Part shown: piece after piece, positions 14,789 through 64,000 of the stretch
Layout of the letters: the number at the start of each line of letters is the position of its first letter
How positions within the stretch are numbered: the stretch's first letter is position 1
DNA from: Ruminococcus sp.
Lineage (GTDB): Bacteria > Bacillota > Clostridia > Oscillospirales > Acutalibacteraceae
Direction of reading: 5' to 3'
Length of the DNA stretch: 64,000 bases
Assembly: GCA_017416065.1 (NCBI GenBank)
Contig: JAFQDM010000033.1
Coordinates: forward strand, 79,227-143,226
The notes under the pieces: generated by a model
Databases searched by the model: none
What the model was told of the DNA's origin: nothing
Seen by the model: the letters and a program-made list of their open reading frames with translations, nothing else
Position numbers and translations under genes: made by a program

Positions 14789-15007
14789 ATGAAAAGTTAT
14801 ACTGAGATCATAAAAGATCTGAGAGAAGACCACGACAAAACTCAAAAAGAGATTGCACAATATCTGGGAACCACACAGCAGGTATACTCGCGCTACGAAA
14901 AAGGTGAAAACGAGATGCCTGTCAGGCACATCATTGCCCTGTGCAGATTTTACAACGTATCCGCCGACTATATTCTCGGACTTTCCGAGTCCAAAACTCA
15001 AAACTGA
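14789..15007 (+). CDS. XRE-family HTH transcriptional regulator
   Basis: 72 residues consisting almost only of a Cro/CI-type helix-turn-helix (KTQKEIAQYLGTTQQVYSRYEKG) and the usual FYNVSADYILGL helix. Single-domain DNA-binding protein. GGGGTG precedes ATG 14789. Divergent to the three minus-strand genes and 61 nt from the inverted repeat, so autoregulation and repression of those genes are likely. A terminator hairpin follows 13 nt after its stop. Confidence 0.88.
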   Translation: MKSYTEIIKDLREDHDKTQKEIAQYLGTTQQVYSRYEKGENEMPVRHIIALCRFYNVSADYILGLSESKTQN

Positions 15008-49046: not shown

Positions 49047-49109
49047 CCTCCATTTTTGTTGATTGGAAGAGCTCCTGCATCAGACAAACAGAACAGCAAA
49101 CAAAAAATC

Positions 49110-49139
49110 AACCCTCCTGCGTGACTTAGCAGGAGGGTT
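49110..49139. terminator. Strong bidirectional terminator
   Basis: AACCCTCCTGC pairs with GCAGGAGGGTT. On the plus strand it follows the glycosylase gene; on the minus strand a GATTTTTTG tail ends the repeat-bearing transcription unit from 49.99 kb. Confidence 0.92.
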
Positions 49140-49172
49140 ATTTATTATTTAAATTAAAAGCTGAATTTTCTT

Positions 49173-49621
49173 TTGGCCCATACCTCTCATTTCTTAGAAT
49201 AAGCGAAATAAATTTGATTATCTCATTGGACTATACCTCTGAAATTGTTTTGGTCGAGATTAAGCTTTAAGTAATTGTTGGCCCGTACCTCGCATTTCTT
49301 AAAATAAGCGAAATAAATTTGATTATCTCATTGGTCTGTACCTCTGAAATTATTTTGGTCGAGATTAAGCTTTAAGTAATTGTTGGCCCGTACCTCGCAT
49401 TTCTTAGGATAAGGTCGAATTAAATATTAAATGTACATTGGTTTGTCCTCGTAAATTTATGGTTTTAATTCGTGGGGTTAGTTAAAATTTAAACTGTACT
49501 TTGGTCTGTACCTCGAATTTCTTAGAATTTCTGAGATCTTTCTTACTTATCTCATTGGACCGTACCTCTTCTTTAGATTTTGTTGAAGATAAATTTTACT
49601 TGTACATTGGCTTTTACCTTT
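49173..49621 (-). ncRNA. Nine-unit ~54-nt repeat array in a probable non-coding transcript
   Basis: The word TTGG(N)C(N)GTACCTC (plus strand) starts at 49173, 49226, 49278, 49331, 49383, 49438, 49501, 49555 and 49607, a period of 52-63 nt. In transcript orientation each unit shows GAGGTAC-G-CCAA. Units 1-4 make two copies of a 105-bp direct repeat; the others are diverged apart from the core. Five units continue as ATG plus a stop after one or two more codons: ATG AGA TAA at 49547-49555, 49323-49331 and 49218-49226; ATG TAC AAG TAA at 49596-49607; ATG TAC ATT TAA at 49427-49438. Each is 8-9 nt behind AGAGG, GAGG or AAAGG. No long ORF exists on either strand. Confidence 0.6.
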
Positions 49622-49819
49622 GGGTCGTTCATCGGAGGTCAGAGACATCCGGTGTATGTTCCTGTTTATGTATATCATAGTGATTACATTTCAAATCAAA
49701 TACTCTTTCACTTTCTGATGCGGCACTTGAGTTGTTAGTTCAAATCCTTTCAGTCGTATCAATTGTGGTAAGTAATTTCACCTGAAAGCTTCTGAGCGTT
49801 TTAATCAGTAAACTGTTGC

Positions 49820-49936
49820 TTACTGAATATCGGAAGAGATCTCCGATATAAAACTATTTGAATTGATGTTTGTGCTTACTGCCGATCCAGCCATCACTAC
49901 CAAAGTCTGAACCGGACAGTTCTGACTTTCGATCAT
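49820..49936 (-). CDS. Short 38-residue ORF at the head of the repeat transcript
   Basis: ATG 49936 has AAGGAGGAG at 49943-49951 with 8-nt spacing, the strongest ribosome site in the region, and the frame runs 38 codons to TAA (49820-49822). The peptide begins MIESQNCPVQ and has a short hydrophobic, small-residue centre (TLVVMAGSAV) with a Ser/Asn/Ile-rich end. No known family. It sits about 50 nt after the predicted transcription start; a GAGATG-GAAA-CATCTC hairpin precedes it. Confidence 0.5.
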   Translation of the reverse strand: MIESQNCPVQTLVVMAGSAVSTNINSNSFISEISSDIQ

Positions 49937-49993
49937 CGGTATCTCCTCCTTCTTTTGAGCTTTGAGATGTTTCCATCTCTTCTCTGTGTCTAT

Positions 49994-50022
49994 ATTGTAT
50001 CATAAGTTTTCTTATTGTGCAA
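49994..50022 (-). promoter_or_regulatory. Promoter of the repeat transcript
   Basis: Minus strand TTGCAC (50017-50022), 17-nt spacer, TACAAT (49994-49999). Predicted start near 49987, giving a transcript of about 870 nt to the terminator at 49110. Confidence 0.75.
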
Positions 50023-50093
50023 TACTTTTATGCAATTTTAACAACTGAATATTGCACAATGTTTTTTGTACTGATTAGTTCACATTGCACAAA
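50015..50093. promoter_or_regulatory. TTGCACAA inverted and direct repeats at the repeat-transcript promoter
   Basis: ATTGTGCAATA (50015-50025) and its exact complement TATTGCACAAT (50050-50060) bracket 24 bp, and a third ATTGCACAA lies at 50085-50093. The first overlaps the -35 element. They look like regulator binding sites. Confidence 0.55.
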
Positions 50094-50464: not shown

Positions 50465-51316
50465 TTACTCTGTAACTCTGTTCTTGCGAGCGAAGAAGAT
50501 AACGCCTGCGGAAGCGATCATCATTGTGATTGCAACGTAAACGATTGTCATCTCCTGGCCTGTGCTAACTGCACCGCCTGCAGAAGGAGTGATGGGCTTT
50601 GCCTGCTCGGGAGCCTTGGACTCTGCCTTTGTCCACTTGAGCTCAACGCCTGCTTCCTTGATGAGCTTCTCTACCTGATCCTGAGAAAGGCCCAGTGCCT
50701 CTGCTACATCGTCAATGATAGCCTGGTCATCCTTACCGGAGCTTGCCTGTGCGCTCAGAAGGTTGTTGCCTGTGATGAAGGAAGTGAAGAGGCTCTCTGC
50801 TGATGCGCCGGGAGCAAGTGAAGTACCTACAACGTTACCGATGGATGTGATACCCATGATAGGACCGTACTGAGCTCTGTCCTGGTTCTTCCAGTATGCT
50901 GCGATAGCTGTCTTGTTGCTGTCTGCGGGGTTCTCAAACTTTGTACCATCGCAGAAAACAGTGTCGCCGTAGCAAGACTTGGAAAGAAGAAGGTCATAAG
51001 TCTGGATGCCTGTGTTAACGCTGAAGATTACACAGTAGATTTTGCCGTCCTGAAGACCGCCAACCTTGGATACATCGTAAGAATAGAGCTTGTCGCCCAT
51101 ATCTGTACATTTGCCTGCCTTAACCTGCCAGCCCATAAGAGCGTCGCCCTCATACTCCCAGATGTAGCAGAAAACGTTCTTGTAGTTGTTCCAATCCTCG
51201 GGAACCTGGAAATAGATAGTTGTGTCCTCTGCTGCAGAAGCAGGAGTTGCTGCGATTGCTGCCATACAGGCGAGCATCATCAGAGCCATCATAATGCTGA
51301 TGATTTTCTTGAACAT
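50465..51316 (-). CDS. Secreted protein with starch-binding-like N-terminal domain and C-terminal membrane anchor
   Basis: 283 residues. Signal peptide ends in ASA (residue 28). Residues about 30-125 have the pattern of CBM25/26-type modules (TIYFQVPEDWNNYKNVFCYIWEYEG, a W-and-K motif and a late DTVFCDGT). A helical region (about 165-225) is followed by a Pro/Ala linker and a membrane helix near 258-277 ending in basic residues, so the protein is held outward on the cell surface. It may bind starch or present it to the amylases encoded upstream; this is an inference. TAGGAGG precedes ATG 51316. Confidence 0.7.
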   Translation of the reverse strand: MFKKIISIMMALMMLACMAAIAATPASAAEDTTIYFQVPEDWNNYKNVFCYIWEYEGDALMGWQVKAGKCTDMGDKLYSYDVSKVGGLQDGKIYCVIFSVNTGIQTYDLLLSKSCYGDTVFCDGTKFENPADSNKTAIAAYWKNQDRAQYGPIMGITSIGNVVGTSLAPGASAESLFTSFITGNNLLSAQASSGKDDQAIIDDVAEALGLSQDQVEKLIKEAGVELKWTKAESKAPEQAKPITPSAGGAVSTGQEMTIVYVAITMMIASAGVIFFARKNRVTE

Positions 51317-51364
51317 AGGTAATTACCTCCTAAAAATTCTTCGAGATTCTTCTCGTCATAGAAG

Positions 51365-51393
51365 ATTATACTACAATTATTTCAAAACTGCAA
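51365..51393 (-). promoter_or_regulatory. Promoter of the anchored starch-cluster protein
   Basis: Minus strand TTGCAG (51388-51393), 17-nt spacer, TATAAT (51365-51370). It gives the gene its own transcript apart from the amylases. Confidence 0.75.
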
Positions 51394-51553
51394 TAGTTTT
51401 TACAAATAATAGTCTTTACTTTTTGCACAAATTTCTATGTGTTAATTTGGTGCTTCCCCTCATAGTGCATTGTGATTGATAATCCCCCACAAGCTGCTGT
51501 GGCGACACCCCGAAAAACAAGGTGCCGCCACTTTAGAAAAACAGTTTGGAAAA

Positions 51554-53812
51554 CTACTTGAGGTATGTCTGACCTGAGGGTCCGATCTTGCCTGAGATGC
51601 CTGTAAAGCCTGAGGCACAGCAAACATAAACCCTCATGTTGCCCTTACCTGAAGAGGAAACAGTGAGTGTGCCGTTTGTAACGTTCTTCACGTCACCTGT
51701 TACAGCATCAATATACTTGCCGTTGGGAATGCCCTTGAAGGTTGCACCGTCAGTAACGGATACAAGTGCCAGGCTGTCAACACCCTCCTCAGCATTTGTG
51801 TATCTCTTGATATATGCCATATTGCCGGCTACGTAGCTGCTGCTTGTGGTGTACTGACCCTTCTGCAGAGCAGGGATAGCACGGCGGATAGCGTTAAGCT
51901 TCTGAATATGCTTTGCAAGGGGGCTGTTCAGTGTATTTGCAACTGTGCCCGTTGCTGTGTACTCGCTGAAGTCAGATGCAGTAACGGTACCCTCGATGTT
52001 ATCTCCGTAATATGCACGGCCTGTGGTAGACAGAGGTGCTCCGGGGCCGACGTCGATCACCTGACCTGCCTGGAACTCGATCTCTGAGCCATAATAGAGG
52101 CAGGGAATTCCACGGAAGGTGAACATAAGGCAAAGGTTCTCTGCCCAAGCCTGAGTTCCGCCGTTGTAACGCACGGTCTGACATCTGTCGGGGCTGTAGT
52201 CGTGAGAATCAACGTACACAACGTTCCATGTGGAGTCATTGTAGTACTTGTCCTCTTCCTTAGCAACGTTGAAGGCTTCTCCTGCTGTGTAGTATGCCCA
52301 GTGCATGGGGAAGTCGATAACTCCCGTTCCGTTAGCCTGGGAATAATCGGGAGTACGGTATTGGATACCGCTGAGGAATGCGTTCTTGCTGTTGTAGGAA
52401 ACTTCTCTTGTATTGTAAGCCGCAAAGTGGTCAATGGTCTTCTGGTAGTTTTTGCTCCAGCTTGAGCTGCTCCAGTTATCCTTCCAGGCTGAGTCTGTCT
52501 CCTTCCAGGTATAGAAGAAGCAGGAGTCGGAAGCGCCGCCTTCGTTAAAGGCACCGTGATATCTTGCGCAAACCTCGCCGAAGATGTAGAAGTTATCTAT
52601 TGCAGTGAACTTGGGGAAATATGCGTGGTTAAGAGTCCATCGGTTGATATGCTTCTCAGTATCCAGACGGAAGGCATCAACGCCCATATCCACATAGTCA
52701 AGGTATGTGTTTGTCAGATACTCAGCAACCGCAGGATTCTCTGTATTGATATCCACACAGTCACCCGCTATCTGTCCTGCCTGCTCTGTGTAGTTACCCC
52801 AGGACTGAGATTTCTCGTGGTGATAGTAATTGTTTGTATCGTGAGAATCCTCTTTCATAACAGCAATTCTTGCATCATACTGCTGACCTGCTGTGAGGTT
52901 TTCATAGTTGGGGTATGCCTTTGCAAGGGTAGAATCAGGGAGCAGCTTCATACTGTCGATGCTCTCCAGGTCCTTAATGTCGTCGTACTCTTTCTCAAAC
53001 ATAGGAGCAAGGAATGCCTCTCCGAAGTTACCTGAGTGATTCCATACAACGTCCTGGATGATCTTCATTCCCTTTTCATGGGCAGCGTCAAGAAGATCCT
53101 GATACGTAAAGTCTGAGGACTCATATCTTGCGTCTACCTTTGCAAAGTTCATTGCATGGTAACCGTGGTAGTCATAGCCGGATGCATTCTCTGCAATGGG
53201 AGTGATCCAGATGGCGGAGAAGCCCAGAGCCTTGATGTAATCAAGCTTTTCTGCAAGTCCCTTGAAGTCTCCGCGCCATGCAGGGTCAGAATCGGGGTTG
53301 TTTGCGTTGTCGTCATCCCAGCAATGCACGTTGTTGCCTGTGTCGCCGTCATAAAAACGGGTCGTAATCACAAAATAAATCGTATCCTCACGGAAGTCAC
53401 CGCGCTCCACGGTAGGGCCGTTTGCTGTTTTGCTCCAGCGTCCGTCCTTGTAGTACCAATCGCCTGTGTTGCGGGTGAGCTCTTCTGTAAGCTGACCAGA
53501 AAGCTGAGATGTACCGTCTGTAAACATAAGGTTTATCTTTGTGGTATCAGCAAAGGTATGCTTGTACCAGTTTGCACCGGATGCTGTATCTGCGGTCATC
53601 TTAACTCCGGGGTATGCGGTTTCGAGATTCATGGGAAGGGCGTTCCAATAATATACATACGGAACGGTGCCTTCGCAATAAAAATGAACAGTAATGCCGC
53701 TTGCTGAGGTTTCTGCAATCTGCTTTTCCTGTGCAAATGCAGAGTATACACCTGCTCCAAGGCATATTGCCAAACACAGCACAAGTGCGACAACTGACTT
53801 AAAACGTCTCAA
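51554..53812 (-). CDS. Secreted GH13 alpha-amylase with N-terminal CBM26-like module
   Basis: 752 residues. Signal peptide to about residue 28, a CBM26-like starch-binding module (about 33-125; YVYYWNALPMNLETAYPG), GH13 catalytic barrel (about 135-640) and a C-terminal beta domain (about 645-750). Catalytic Asp is in GVDAFRLDTEKH, Glu in FGEVCAR, transition-state Asp in VDSHDYSP; DVVWNHSG is region I. No dockerin. The start is taken as TTG 53812, 8 nt behind GGAGG; another TTG at 53818 is only 2 nt away. Closely related to the next gene upstream. Confidence 0.93.
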   Translation of the reverse strand: MRRFKSVVALVLCLAICLGAGVYSAFAQEKQIAETSASGITVHFYCEGTVPYVYYWNALPMNLETAYPGVKMTADTASGANWYKHTFADTTKINLMFTDGTSQLSGQLTEELTRNTGDWYYKDGRWSKTANGPTVERGDFREDTIYFVITTRFYDGDTGNNVHCWDDDNANNPDSDPAWRGDFKGLAEKLDYIKALGFSAIWITPIAENASGYDYHGYHAMNFAKVDARYESSDFTYQDLLDAAHEKGMKIIQDVVWNHSGNFGEAFLAPMFEKEYDDIKDLESIDSMKLLPDSTLAKAYPNYENLTAGQQYDARIAVMKEDSHDTNNYYHHEKSQSWGNYTEQAGQIAGDCVDINTENPAVAEYLTNTYLDYVDMGVDAFRLDTEKHINRWTLNHAYFPKFTAIDNFYIFGEVCARYHGAFNEGGASDSCFFYTWKETDSAWKDNWSSSSWSKNYQKTIDHFAAYNTREVSYNSKNAFLSGIQYRTPDYSQANGTGVIDFPMHWAYYTAGEAFNVAKEEDKYYNDSTWNVVYVDSHDYSPDRCQTVRYNGGTQAWAENLCLMFTFRGIPCLYYGSEIEFQAGQVIDVGPGAPLSTTGRAYYGDNIEGTVTASDFSEYTATGTVANTLNSPLAKHIQKLNAIRRAIPALQKGQYTTSSSYVAGNMAYIKRYTNAEEGVDSLALVSVTDGATFKGIPNGKYIDAVTGDVKNVTNGTLTVSSSGKGNMRVYVCCASGFTGISGKIGPSGQTYLK

Positions 53813-53873
53813 TCTCAATTCCTCCTTACTCTAAATGTAATGTTATCAATGTATATACCAAATCGTGCAATAA

Positions 53874-56282
53874 TTATTTAAGATAAGTGAGTCCTGTATC
53901 TCCGATCACACCGTCGATACCTGTAAAGCCTGAGGCACAGCAAACGTAAACTCTGGCATTTCCTTTGCCGATGGAAGGTACGTTCAACGTGCCGTTGGTT
54001 ACGTTCTTAACATCACCCGTGATAGCATCAATATACTTACCGTTGGGGATATTCTTGAAGGTTGCACCGCCGGAAACAGTCACAAGTGCCAGGCTGTCCA
54101 CACCCTCCTGAGCATCAGTAAAGCGGCGGATATATGCCATATTGCCTGATACGTACTTGCTGTCTGTGGTGTACTGACCCTTCTGAAGTGCAGGGATAGC
54201 ACGGCGCACAGCATTAAGCTTTGTCAGGTGCTTTGCAAGGGGTGAGTTAAGGGTATCCTTAACAGTACCCGTTGCCGTATATTCGCTGAAGTCTGTAGCG
54301 GTAACACTACCCTCCAGGTAATCTCCGAAATATGCACGACCTGTGGTGGAAAGGGGAGCATTAGGACCTACGTCCATAATAACGCCCTTCTGGAACTCAA
54401 CCTCACCGCCGTAGTAGAGGCAGGGAATTCCGCGGAATGTGAACATAAGGCTCATATTCTCTGCCCATGCCTGTGTGCCGCCTGTGTAGCGTGTGCTCTG
54501 GCTCTGGTCGGGGCTGTAATCGTGAGATTCAACGTAAACAACGTTCCAGGTGGAGTCGTTGAAGTACTTATCCTCTGCCTTTGCAATACCAAACGCATTG
54601 TTTGCATCTCCAAAGCACCAGTGCATCTGGAAGTCGATGGCTCCCATGCCTGAGCTCTGTGAGTAATCGGGTGTATGGTATGTGATTCCGTTGAGGAATG
54701 CATTGGTGGAGGTTGGCTGATTGCTAACGCTGTCATACTGCTTGTAGTGATCAAAGGTAAGATTCATATTCTCATTGATCTCTTCTGCGGTTGCGTTAAC
54801 GTCAAAATTCCAATTATCCTTATATTTGCTGTCTGTTTCGTCCCATGTATAGAACTGAACGGATTCACAAGCGTGATCTCTGTACCAAACCTGGCTGAAA
54901 CGGCAGCATATCTCACCGAACATATAGAAGTCTTTTTTGCCAATGGACTGTGCCGCGTGGTTGATGGCATCGTTGTACATCATATTCAGAGAAAGTCTGG
55001 AGATGTGGCGCACGGTATCAACACGGAAGGCATCTACGCCCTTTGCAATGTAATCTGAGTAGGTATCTGTCAGATACTTAGCCACAGCAGGATGCTCTGT
55101 GTTAAGGTCAACGCAGTCGCCTGCTATCTGGCAGTATTTACAAGTCCAGTCGTCCCAGTTAAGGCTCTGGAAATATCCTGTGTGGTAATAGTTATGAGGA
55201 TTGTACTTGGGATCAGTAGAGACCTTGTGCATCTCATAGTCTGTATCATCGGGATGCGTACCAGTTGAGTTGTTTGCACCTGCTGCAGATGCAGTATTCT
55301 TCATAAGGTTAAGTCTTTGGTCGTACTGAACCTGACCCTTCTGTGCCCAATACTCCTCAGGGCTTGAAAGTCCGTAGGAGTTGAGCAGATAATCTGTGGG
55401 AACCATACATTCCTCAAGGTTTGAAAGGTCCTTGGTTGTGTCCTTCTCAAAAAGAGGACAGAAGTAGCTCTCGCCAAAGTTACCCGTGTGCTGCCACACA
55501 ACGTCCTGAATAACCTTCATTCCCTTTGCGTGTGCTGCTTCAATAAGGTCTTCGTAGGTGAAGTCCTCGGACTCGTATCTTGCATCAACTGTTGAAAAAT
55601 CCATTGCATGGTAGCCGTGGTAATCGTAGCCTGAAGCGTTGGTTACAACGGGAGTGATCCAGATTGCGGAGAAGCCAAGAGCCTTGATGTAGTCAAGCTT
55701 TTCAGCCAAGCCCTTGAAGTCGCCCCTCCAGGCAGGGTCAGAATCGGGATTCTGTGCCTGAGAATCATCCCAGCAATGCACGTTGTTGCCTGTATCGCCG
55801 TCATAGAAACGGGTTGTGATCACAAAGTAGATGGTATCCTCACGGAAATCCCTGTAATCATACTCACGGGGTACGTCGGGATTATAGCTGTACCATCTGC
55901 CGTCCTTGTACCACCATTCGCCTGAGTTTCTTGTGAGCTCCTCTGAAAGCTGACCCGAAAGCTCAGACGTACCGTCTGTGAACAGCATATTGATCTTTGT
56001 TGAATCCTTGAAGGTATATTTATACCAATTGCCACCCTCCTGGGTGGAATCAGCAGTCATCTTAACACCGGGGTATGCTGTCTCAAGATTCTGAGGCAAA
56101 GCATTCCAATAGTAGATGTAAGGCACGGAATCCTCACTTTTGAGGTATACCGTAATACCTGCGCTGTCTGCAGAAACCTCTGCCGCGCTATCGCTTTCAG
56201 CCGCAGAAAAACCTGTAATACCAAAGGAAATTGCAAGAGCAAATACAAGTACAAGAGCCGCAATTCTTTTGAATTTACTCAT
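53874..56282 (-). CDS. Secreted GH13 alpha-amylase with N-terminal CBM26-like module, paralogue
   Basis: 802 residues with the same plan as its neighbour: signal peptide (about 1-28), CBM26-like module (about 42-140; IYYWNALPQNLETAYPG), GH13 barrel and C-terminal beta domain. Catalytic Asp in GVDAFRVDTVRH, Glu in MFGEICCR, Asp in VESHDYSPD. It is about 50 residues longer because of insertions after the first third. No dockerin. GGAGGAG precedes ATG 56282, 14 nt after the CBM26-dockerin gene, so both belong to one operon. Confidence 0.94.
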   Translation of the reverse strand: MSKFKRIAALVLVFALAISFGITGFSAAESDSAAEVSADSAGITVYLKSEDSVPYIYYWNALPQNLETAYPGVKMTADSTQEGGNWYKYTFKDSTKINMLFTDGTSELSGQLSEELTRNSGEWWYKDGRWYSYNPDVPREYDYRDFREDTIYFVITTRFYDGDTGNNVHCWDDSQAQNPDSDPAWRGDFKGLAEKLDYIKALGFSAIWITPVVTNASGYDYHGYHAMDFSTVDARYESEDFTYEDLIEAAHAKGMKVIQDVVWQHTGNFGESYFCPLFEKDTTKDLSNLEECMVPTDYLLNSYGLSSPEEYWAQKGQVQYDQRLNLMKNTASAAGANNSTGTHPDDTDYEMHKVSTDPKYNPHNYYHTGYFQSLNWDDWTCKYCQIAGDCVDLNTEHPAVAKYLTDTYSDYIAKGVDAFRVDTVRHISRLSLNMMYNDAINHAAQSIGKKDFYMFGEICCRFSQVWYRDHACESVQFYTWDETDSKYKDNWNFDVNATAEEINENMNLTFDHYKQYDSVSNQPTSTNAFLNGITYHTPDYSQSSGMGAIDFQMHWCFGDANNAFGIAKAEDKYFNDSTWNVVYVESHDYSPDQSQSTRYTGGTQAWAENMSLMFTFRGIPCLYYGGEVEFQKGVIMDVGPNAPLSTTGRAYFGDYLEGSVTATDFSEYTATGTVKDTLNSPLAKHLTKLNAVRRAIPALQKGQYTTDSKYVSGNMAYIRRFTDAQEGVDSLALVTVSGGATFKNIPNGKYIDAITGDVKNVTNGTLNVPSIGKGNARVYVCCASGFTGIDGVIGDTGLTYLK

Positions 56283-63812: not shown

Positions 63813-64000
63813 ACTTCTTATTTCTTACCTCTAACCTCTTACTTTTTACCTCTTACTTTTTACCTCTTACTTTTTACCTCTTACTTTTTACCTCTTACTT
63901 TTTACCTCTTACTTTTTACCTCTTACTTCTTACCTCTTACTTCTTACCTCTTACTTCTTACCTCTTACTTCTTACCTCTTACTTCTTACCTCTTACTTCT
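63813..64000. repeat. 14-bp tandem repeat reaching the window end
   Basis: Two degenerate units (63813-63840), then six copies of ACTTTTTACCTCTT (63841-63924), then five of ACTTCTTACCTCTT (63925-63994) and a partial one to 64000. One strand is almost purely pyrimidine. The switch from one variant to the other is clean. The array continues beyond the window. Confidence 0.95.

What the first reader, a model, noticed from the sequence alone, without database searches (positions are those of the whole stretch)
49110..50022. Complete non-coding-like transcription unit with nine repeats
A TTGCAC-17-TACAAT promoter, a 5' hairpin with GAAA loop, further hairpins, nine ~54-nt repeats with a GAGGTAC-G-CCAA core, and a strong terminator form an ~870-nt unit without a long ORF. 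The core is kept in units whose other bases have diverged, so it is probably under selection. This could be a large regulatory RNA that binds a protein or ribosomes in multiple copies.
Basis: partly seen in the sequence, partly recalled or inferred. Interest (0 to 1): 0.8.

Follow-up and report, generated by a model that had tools for sequence, protein, structure and literature searches.

The report
Repeat-built RNA with ribosome-docking motifs
A gut-type bacterium's genome holds a gene for an RNA built from nine copies of a motif that looks like a ribosome landing site followed by almost no message, and the same unnamed kind of RNA turns up across many Clostridia.

Summary
In detail: promoter, 5' hairpin, nine cores (spacing 52-64 nt) and terminator lie on the minus strand. 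It is not a local oddity: four other species of the genus keep the whole unit, and a capped scan gave 83 loci with the repeat, nearly all Clostridia. No Rfam 15 family matches an array at its gathering score in the window or 15 loci. The unit is a linear motif, AGGAGGUACRGUCCAA-(UG/AG/CA/UC)-RAA..UAAG, with no internal pairing found: a Shine-Dalgarno sequence, a conserved spacer, then AUG (147 of 279) or a poor start, then an in-frame stop, usually at codon 3 or 4. Most loci have a near-consensus promoter and no long sense ORF. In 30 of 54 loci the last unit is a mini-ORF whose stop abuts the terminator (controls 13% and 10%); the window's array lacks this. Best reading: a stand-alone RNA that docks several 30S subunits or ribosomes while making almost no protein; a protein partner is the main rival. 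A general CsrB-like role is unlikely (csrA absent from 12 of 17 genomes). No expression data were available.

The parts
49109..50022 (-). whole RNA gene, promoter to terminator
   Evidence: homologues with the same order of parts in G077, G045, G088, G071
50014..50093 (.). TTGTGCAA/ATTGCACAA palindromes overlapping and preceding the -35 box, possible operators
   Evidence: three exact and one one-mismatch site (over the whole window such sites are not above chance); conserved to varying degree in four relatives
49994..50022 (-). promoter TTGCAC-17-TACAAT
49964..49979 (-). 5' hairpin with GAAA loop
   Evidence: not clearly conserved in relatives
49820..49936 (-). 38-codon leader ORF with AAGGAGG ribosome-binding site
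   Evidence: open frame kept in G077, G045, G088 with little protein-level constraint (pN/pS 0.53-1.00 over six pairs); no Pfam or PADLOC match
49607..49620 (-). core 1, AAGGTAAAAGCCAA then ATG TAC AAG TAA
49555..49568 (-). core 2, then ATG AGA TAA
49501..49514 (-). core 3, no ATG
49438..49450 (-). core 4, GAGGACAAACCAA then TG, that is ATG TAC ATT TAA
49383..49396 (-). core 5, no ATG
49331..49344 (-). core 6, then ATG AGA TAA
49278..49291 (-). core 7, no ATG
49226..49239 (-). core 8, then ATG AGA TAA
49173..49186 (-). core 9, no ATG
49109..49140 (-). intrinsic terminator

Best explanation
The unit is the gene of a stand-alone RNA of an unnamed class found in Clostridia. Each repeat is an unstructured docking site for the small ribosomal subunit: a Shine-Dalgarno sequence with a conserved spacer, followed by AUG and a stop one to three codons later, or by a codon that starts poorly or not at all. 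One RNA can so hold several 30S subunits or ribosomes at about one per 50-60 nt while making almost no protein. The likely use is as a decoy or parking RNA that competes for free 30S subunits; bound subunits would also shield the RNA from nucleases. Shown by computation: the conserved unit, its clustering in arrays, its lack of structure, own promoter and terminator, in-frame stops, and a terminal mini-ORF abutting the terminator in many relatives. Inferred: transcription, 30S binding and any effect on translation.
For: Unit consensus with SD, start-codon spacing and stop. In 138 distinct ATG units the in-frame stop falls at codon 3 or 4 in 110, against at most 22 and 19 stops in codons 2-5 of the other frames; ATG units slide the stop by one codon far more often than non-ATG units (36:74 against 5:77, p 5e-6). 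Units have no structure that would hide the SD. Predicted pairing with the 16S 3' end is stronger than for ordinary gene starts (median -16.7 for 245 units, -12.3 for 234 long ORFs given their best start). Spacing floor near 50 nt: 3 of 280 spacings below it. Promoter with at least 10 of 12 consensus bases in 71 of 78 arrays, 20 of 78 after plain shuffling. Terminal mini-ORF next to the terminator in 30 of 54. In whole-genome searches of 22 array genomes, 98 of 99 unit matches lie near another one. A strong SD without a start codon can stabilise RNA (PMC7509114, passages).
Against: No expression or binding data. In the window itself only four of nine cores pair with the 16S end better than the ordinary-start median (-9.8 to -16.9), and its last unit lacks the mini-ORF. 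The spacer UACRGNCC is more conserved than docking needs, and its extra pairing with 16S is not significant once the SD is fixed (17% of shuffles as good). Eight of 51 arrays with three or more exact cores have no ATG core at all. The stop triplet is also kept in non-ATG units, so part of that signal is a fixed motif. The family is patchy, so it is dispensable.
Confidence: 0.42

Rival explanations
1. Multivalent protein sponge or scaffold: GGUAYRGNCCA is the site of an unidentified single-strand RNA-binding protein, and the array titrates or gathers many copies. The SD likeness is a by-product or lets the protein compete with ribosomes.
For: The spacer between SD and start codon is strongly conserved; N7 is C in only 1 of 255 distinct units; 8 of 51 arrays lack ATG cores.
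Against: CsrA, the best-known such protein, is absent from 12 of 17 array genomes including the window's (several are incomplete). No lone operator copies were seen in 22 genomes apart from one match at a contig edge. In-frame stops and terminal mini-ORFs are not explained.
Confidence: 0.28
2. Translated mini-gene array: the mini-ORFs must be translated, either for peptidyl-tRNA drop-off that ties up tRNAs, or for the tiny peptides, above all the last one.
For: In-frame stops in ATG units; terminal mini-ORFs abutting the terminator; synonymous-rich variation in one terminal group (DIKSEQK, 9 synonymous to 3 non-synonymous codon differences). Two-codon minigenes can act through drop-off (PMC8708949, passages).
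Against: 132 of 279 units have no ATG and 8 of 51 arrays have none; other terminal groups show no clear synonymous excess (10:20, 14:34, 36:28, 7:8); the window's leader ORF is weakly constrained.
Confidence: 0.18
3. Regulatory leader or attenuator: translation of the last mini-ORF disrupts the terminator and lets transcription run on.
For: The stop codon lies within 5 nt of the hairpin in the 30 loci found.
Against: The nearest downstream gene is often on the other strand, as in the window; neighbours are not constant.
Confidence: 0.07
4. Neutral tandem repeat or decaying remnant without function.
For: Two 105-nt blocks in the window are 94% identical, so duplication is recent.
Against: Cores are kept while spacers diverge over many genera, with promoter and terminator in place.
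Confidence: 0.05

Closest known systems
CsrB/RsmZ-type sponge RNAs (recalled)
   Same: stand-alone RNA with many copies of an SD-like G-rich site
   Different: theirs are short GGA motifs mostly in hairpin loops and bind CsrA; here the site is a longer unpaired motif and csrA is absent from 12 of 17 genomes
STAB-SD elements and start-less SD stabilisers (PMC7509114, passages)
   Same: an SD that binds ribosomes without useful translation
   Different: single elements in leaders of ordinary mRNAs; here arrays of up to 11 in an RNA without a long ORF
Minigenes, e.g. in axe-txe (PMC8708949, passages)
   Same: SD, start codon and stop after one or two more codons
   Different: one or two copies acting in cis on a downstream gene; here many copies, about half without ATG, no constant downstream gene
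Large Clostridial and Lactobacillales RNAs: ROOL, GOLLD, raiA/ModT (PMC12286853 listing; PMC11706538 passages; PMC5643018 abstract)
   Same: stand-alone bacterial RNA of several hundred nt, own promoter and terminator
   Different: those are highly structured and not made of an unpaired repeat; no Rfam match
Type III toxin-antitoxin RNA (recalled)
   Same: tandem RNA repeats with own promoter and terminator
   Different: about 36-nt pseudoknot repeats next to a toxin gene; here no conserved structure and no constant neighbour

Membership tests
CsrB/RsmZ sponge RNA | CsrA/RsmA present in the genome | tested here: not met
   5 of 17 array genomes have PF02599; window genome and four genus members do not (several genomes are incomplete)
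CsrB/RsmZ sponge RNA | repeat site presented in hairpin loops | tested here: not met
   no structure in units
ROOL, GOLLD, raiA/ModT and other Rfam families | covariance-model match at gathering score | tested here: not met
   window and 15 loci: no match in an array; 11 further loci at E <= 1: only tRNAs above gathering
raiA/ModT | raiA RNA elsewhere in the same genomes | tested here: inconclusive
   0 of 17, but the control genomes did not ring either
Type III toxin-antitoxin | adjacent ToxN/AbiQ-like toxin gene | tested here: not met
   window neighbours are UDG, CBM26 and a third without PADLOC match; neighbours vary in other loci, where no family search was made
Minigene array | start codon in every unit | tested here: not met
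   147 of 279 units ATG; 8 of 51 arrays none
Minigene array | in-frame stop after one to three sense codons in ATG units | tested here: met
   110 of 138 distinct ATG units at codon 3 or 4
STAB-SD like ribosome docking | strong SD in unstructured context | tested here: met
   for the family; for the window only 4 of 9 cores exceed the ordinary-start median
STAB-SD like ribosome docking | 30S binding without translation stabilises or occupies the RNA | not testable with these tools
   needs toe-printing or profiling

The most novel reading that the evidence does not exclude
A Clostridial RNA class that works as a ribosome trap: a tandem array of Shine-Dalgarno sites, each with a start-stop or no start, that loads 30S subunits at ribosome-width spacing and tunes the pool of free ribosomes, ending in many species in a mini-ORF whose terminating ribosome sits against the terminator.
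Probability: 0.3. Interest if true: 0.93.

Novelty: categorically new. Interest (0 to 1): 0.8.

Why it matters
If right, gut and rumen Clostridia carry a dedicated RNA that competes for ribosomes by sequence, a layer of control that my searches of an open-licence library did not turn up. Even if the partner is a protein, this is an unannotated RNA family with a clear repeat unit, present in named species with isolate genomes (Blautia wexlerae, Eubacterium ramulus), so existing RNA-seq and ribosome profiling could test it directly.

Tried and rejected
CsrB-like sponge: unlikely as a general rule. Folded ncRNA with covarying repeats: nothing in fold z-scores (156 units), RNAalifold, or six pairing-permutation tests; a seventh gave no result. 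Extended pairing of the spacer with the 16S 3' end: the consensus prefers that site over all scanned windows of E. coli rRNA, but the spacer adds nothing significant once the SD is fixed. Phage or plasmid origin: no blastn match; the two viral-contig hits look like coding repeats. Attenuator: see rivals. raiA in the same genomes: inconclusive. Likenesses to RNase P, PyrR sites and T-boxes were thought of from memory and not tested.

Selection and dropped rows. I set 35 aside by hand: 24 among the 80 rows whose titles were shown and 11 by the look of the sequence among the other 39. Seven of the 35 went by title alone, because the output was cut there. Of the 56 titled rows kept, 55 name Clostridia taxa and one says uncultured bacterium. 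The 84 kept rows gave 279 units in 83 loci. Contig lengths and sequences show L072 and L025 to be the loci L011 and L012; L133 appears to be L010. Because the scan fixed GGTAYRGNCCAA, conservation at those bases is partly built in. Unit counts are not corrected for relatedness. The mini-ORF groups were collected with patterns loose at third positions, which favours third-base variation; the EESKE and DIKSEQK groups had been seen without such patterns, where they share terminators. The promoter control is a plain shuffle. 29 of 83 loci had no terminator by my detector.

Literature: nine searches of the PMC open-licence library listed no such RNA; only passages of three papers and one abstract were read.

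Full report
What is there. The minus strand from 50022 to 49109 carries a promoter (TTGCAC-17-TACAAT), a GAAA-loop hairpin, a 38-codon ORF with a good ribosome-binding site, nine cores and a terminator. The seven exact cores are the only exact matches in the window. After CCAA, cores 2, 6 and 8 read ATG AGA TAA, cores 1 and 4 read ATG TAC xxx TAA, and cores 3, 5, 7 and 9 have no ATG; over most of the array the two kinds alternate, following a 105-nt double unit. A 44-nt sequence-only model of the unit built from 128 units of other loci (A1, R1) hits the window genome seven times at E <= 1, all in this array.

Relatives in the genus. A blastn search of 100 genomes of the genus, the window's own included, gave matches in 8. 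G077, G045, G088 and G071 have the promoter, an open frame behind the same ribosome-binding site, 5 to 9 cores and a terminator. G047 is a diverged cousin with four cores of another shape, by eye, and the unit model does not find it. G070 and G098 are 22-nt matches that I take as chance. Two contigs have the lengths of records titled Ruminococcus sp.. The promoter region carries TTGTGCAA-type palindromes, conserved to varying degree.

A wide but patchy family. With the unit model 18 of 100 genomes of the family of Blautia wexlerae match at E <= 1e-4, counting the centre and one genome already known, and 12 of 197 in the window's order, counting the window's own; both used strict filters. Exact two-core patterns are rarer: 2 of 398 in the family with the own genome counted, and in 393 genomes of the class only the own genome. 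In 22 genomes chosen because they carry the array or a cousin, 21 match; 98 of 99 matches lie near another one on the same contig, and the exception is at the start of a contig. In some searches I looked at 14 loci: some hold several units, others a single exact core followed by other sequence, a mini-ORF and a terminator, so short versions exist. I saw no unit serving as the start of an ordinary long ORF, but did not test this systematically.

The unit. The consensus is an A-rich stretch, AAGAAAG-like, then GAGGUACRGUCCAA, then UG, AG, CA or UC, then RAA and UAA. Spacers between cores do not fold better than shuffles (156 units, mean z 0.06; with both cores -0.11), RNAalifold finds only the two invariant G-C pairs, and swapping parts between units does not lower complementarity. 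The unit is thus a linear motif with an SD at start-codon distance. Against the E. coli 16S 3' end, 245 units have median duplex energy -16.7 and 234 ORFs of 300 codons or more -12.3 even when given their best start. The consensus prefers this site to the other scanned windows of 16S, 23S and 5S; single units do so less clearly (60 sampled units: median 0.4% of windows better; five window units: 0.5 to 16%). The window's nine cores run from -9.8 to -16.9 and only four beat the ordinary-start median. The spacer's own pairing is not significant (17% of shuffles as good for the consensus; mean z -0.75 for 120 sampled units), so its conservation remains unexplained.

Signs of translation. Among 138 distinct ATG units the first in-frame stop is at codon 3 in 36 and codon 4 in 74; among 117 distinct non-ATG units 5 and 77 (Fisher p 5e-6). 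The stop is thus partly a fixed motif, but in ATG units it can move by a codon and stay in frame. Of 51 arrays with three or more exact cores, 8 have no ATG core. My detector found a terminator in 54 of 83 loci; in 30 of these a start codon with an SD leads to a stop within 5 nt of the hairpin start, against 13% at random places in the same arrays and 10% in shuffled ends. Terminal peptides recur in groups; one (DIKSEQK) has 9 synonymous to 3 other codon differences, a second (EESKE) is rich in third-base changes but has more non-synonymous codon differences (14 to 34), others are mixed. The window's last unit has no such ORF, and its leader ORF is weakly constrained.

Own gene. Of 78 arrays with enough upstream sequence, 71 have a promoter of at least 10 of 12 consensus bases within 420 nt, 20 of 78 after shuffling. 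Twenty ORFs of 80 codons or more overlap arrays, all on the antisense strand. Units per array run from 1 to 11, median 5; 3 of 280 spacings are below 50 nt. Neighbours vary: a secA-like gene on the other strand in at least nine loci, named by look; in the window a uracil-DNA glycosylase and a CBM26 protein.

What it most likely does. Strong SDs can bind ribosomes and stabilise RNAs without a start codon (ermC and ompA, PMC7509114, passage). An unstructured RNA with a row of such sites at ribosome-width spacing, no real ORF, and stops that release any ribosome that starts would hold several 30S subunits or ribosomes. I give this 0.42. The main rival is a protein that reads GGUAYRGNCC, because the spacer is conserved beyond the needs of docking. 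CsrA is not that protein in most of the genomes tested.

Limits. No expression evidence; loci selected by pattern and by hand; 16S taken from E. coli because the search found no 16S gene in eight array genomes, which may be gaps or masking.

Noticed in passing
window 63813-64000: About 13 copies of a 14-nt tandem repeat (ACTTCTTACCTCTT) run to the end of the contig, so the assembly probably broke there.
   Followed up: partly
window 50465-56282: A CBM26 starch-binding protein, an alpha-amylase with CBM26 and a similar large ORF lie in a row upstream of the array: a starch-degradation cluster (the third gene by likeness).
   Followed up: partly
L034, L085, L115, L119, L130, L139, L147, L151, L164: The sequence GACGAGAAAG, often in what looks like a hairpin loop, occurs in 9 of 94 array regions on the sense strand and in none antisense: a possible accessory domain of the RNA.
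   Followed up: partly
L014 1540-1960: Diverged cousin in the same genus (G047): own promoter, 20-codon ORF and four cores of the form GGAGANNAGNCCNATG before a terminator, by eye.
   Followed up: partly
L037: Malaciobacter halophilus hit is a 66-nt-period array that looks like a CRISPR array, a coincidence of the pattern.
   Followed up: no
L021, L028, L030, L031, L044, L099: Mycolicibacterium hits are pairs of the palindrome TTGGTATAGACCAA 58 nt apart, operator-like, unrelated to the array.
   Followed up: no
window 14852-14861: The only other exact ATTGTGCAAT of the window lies in a helix-turn-helix-like coding region (by look), so it is probably not a regulatory site.
   Followed up: partly
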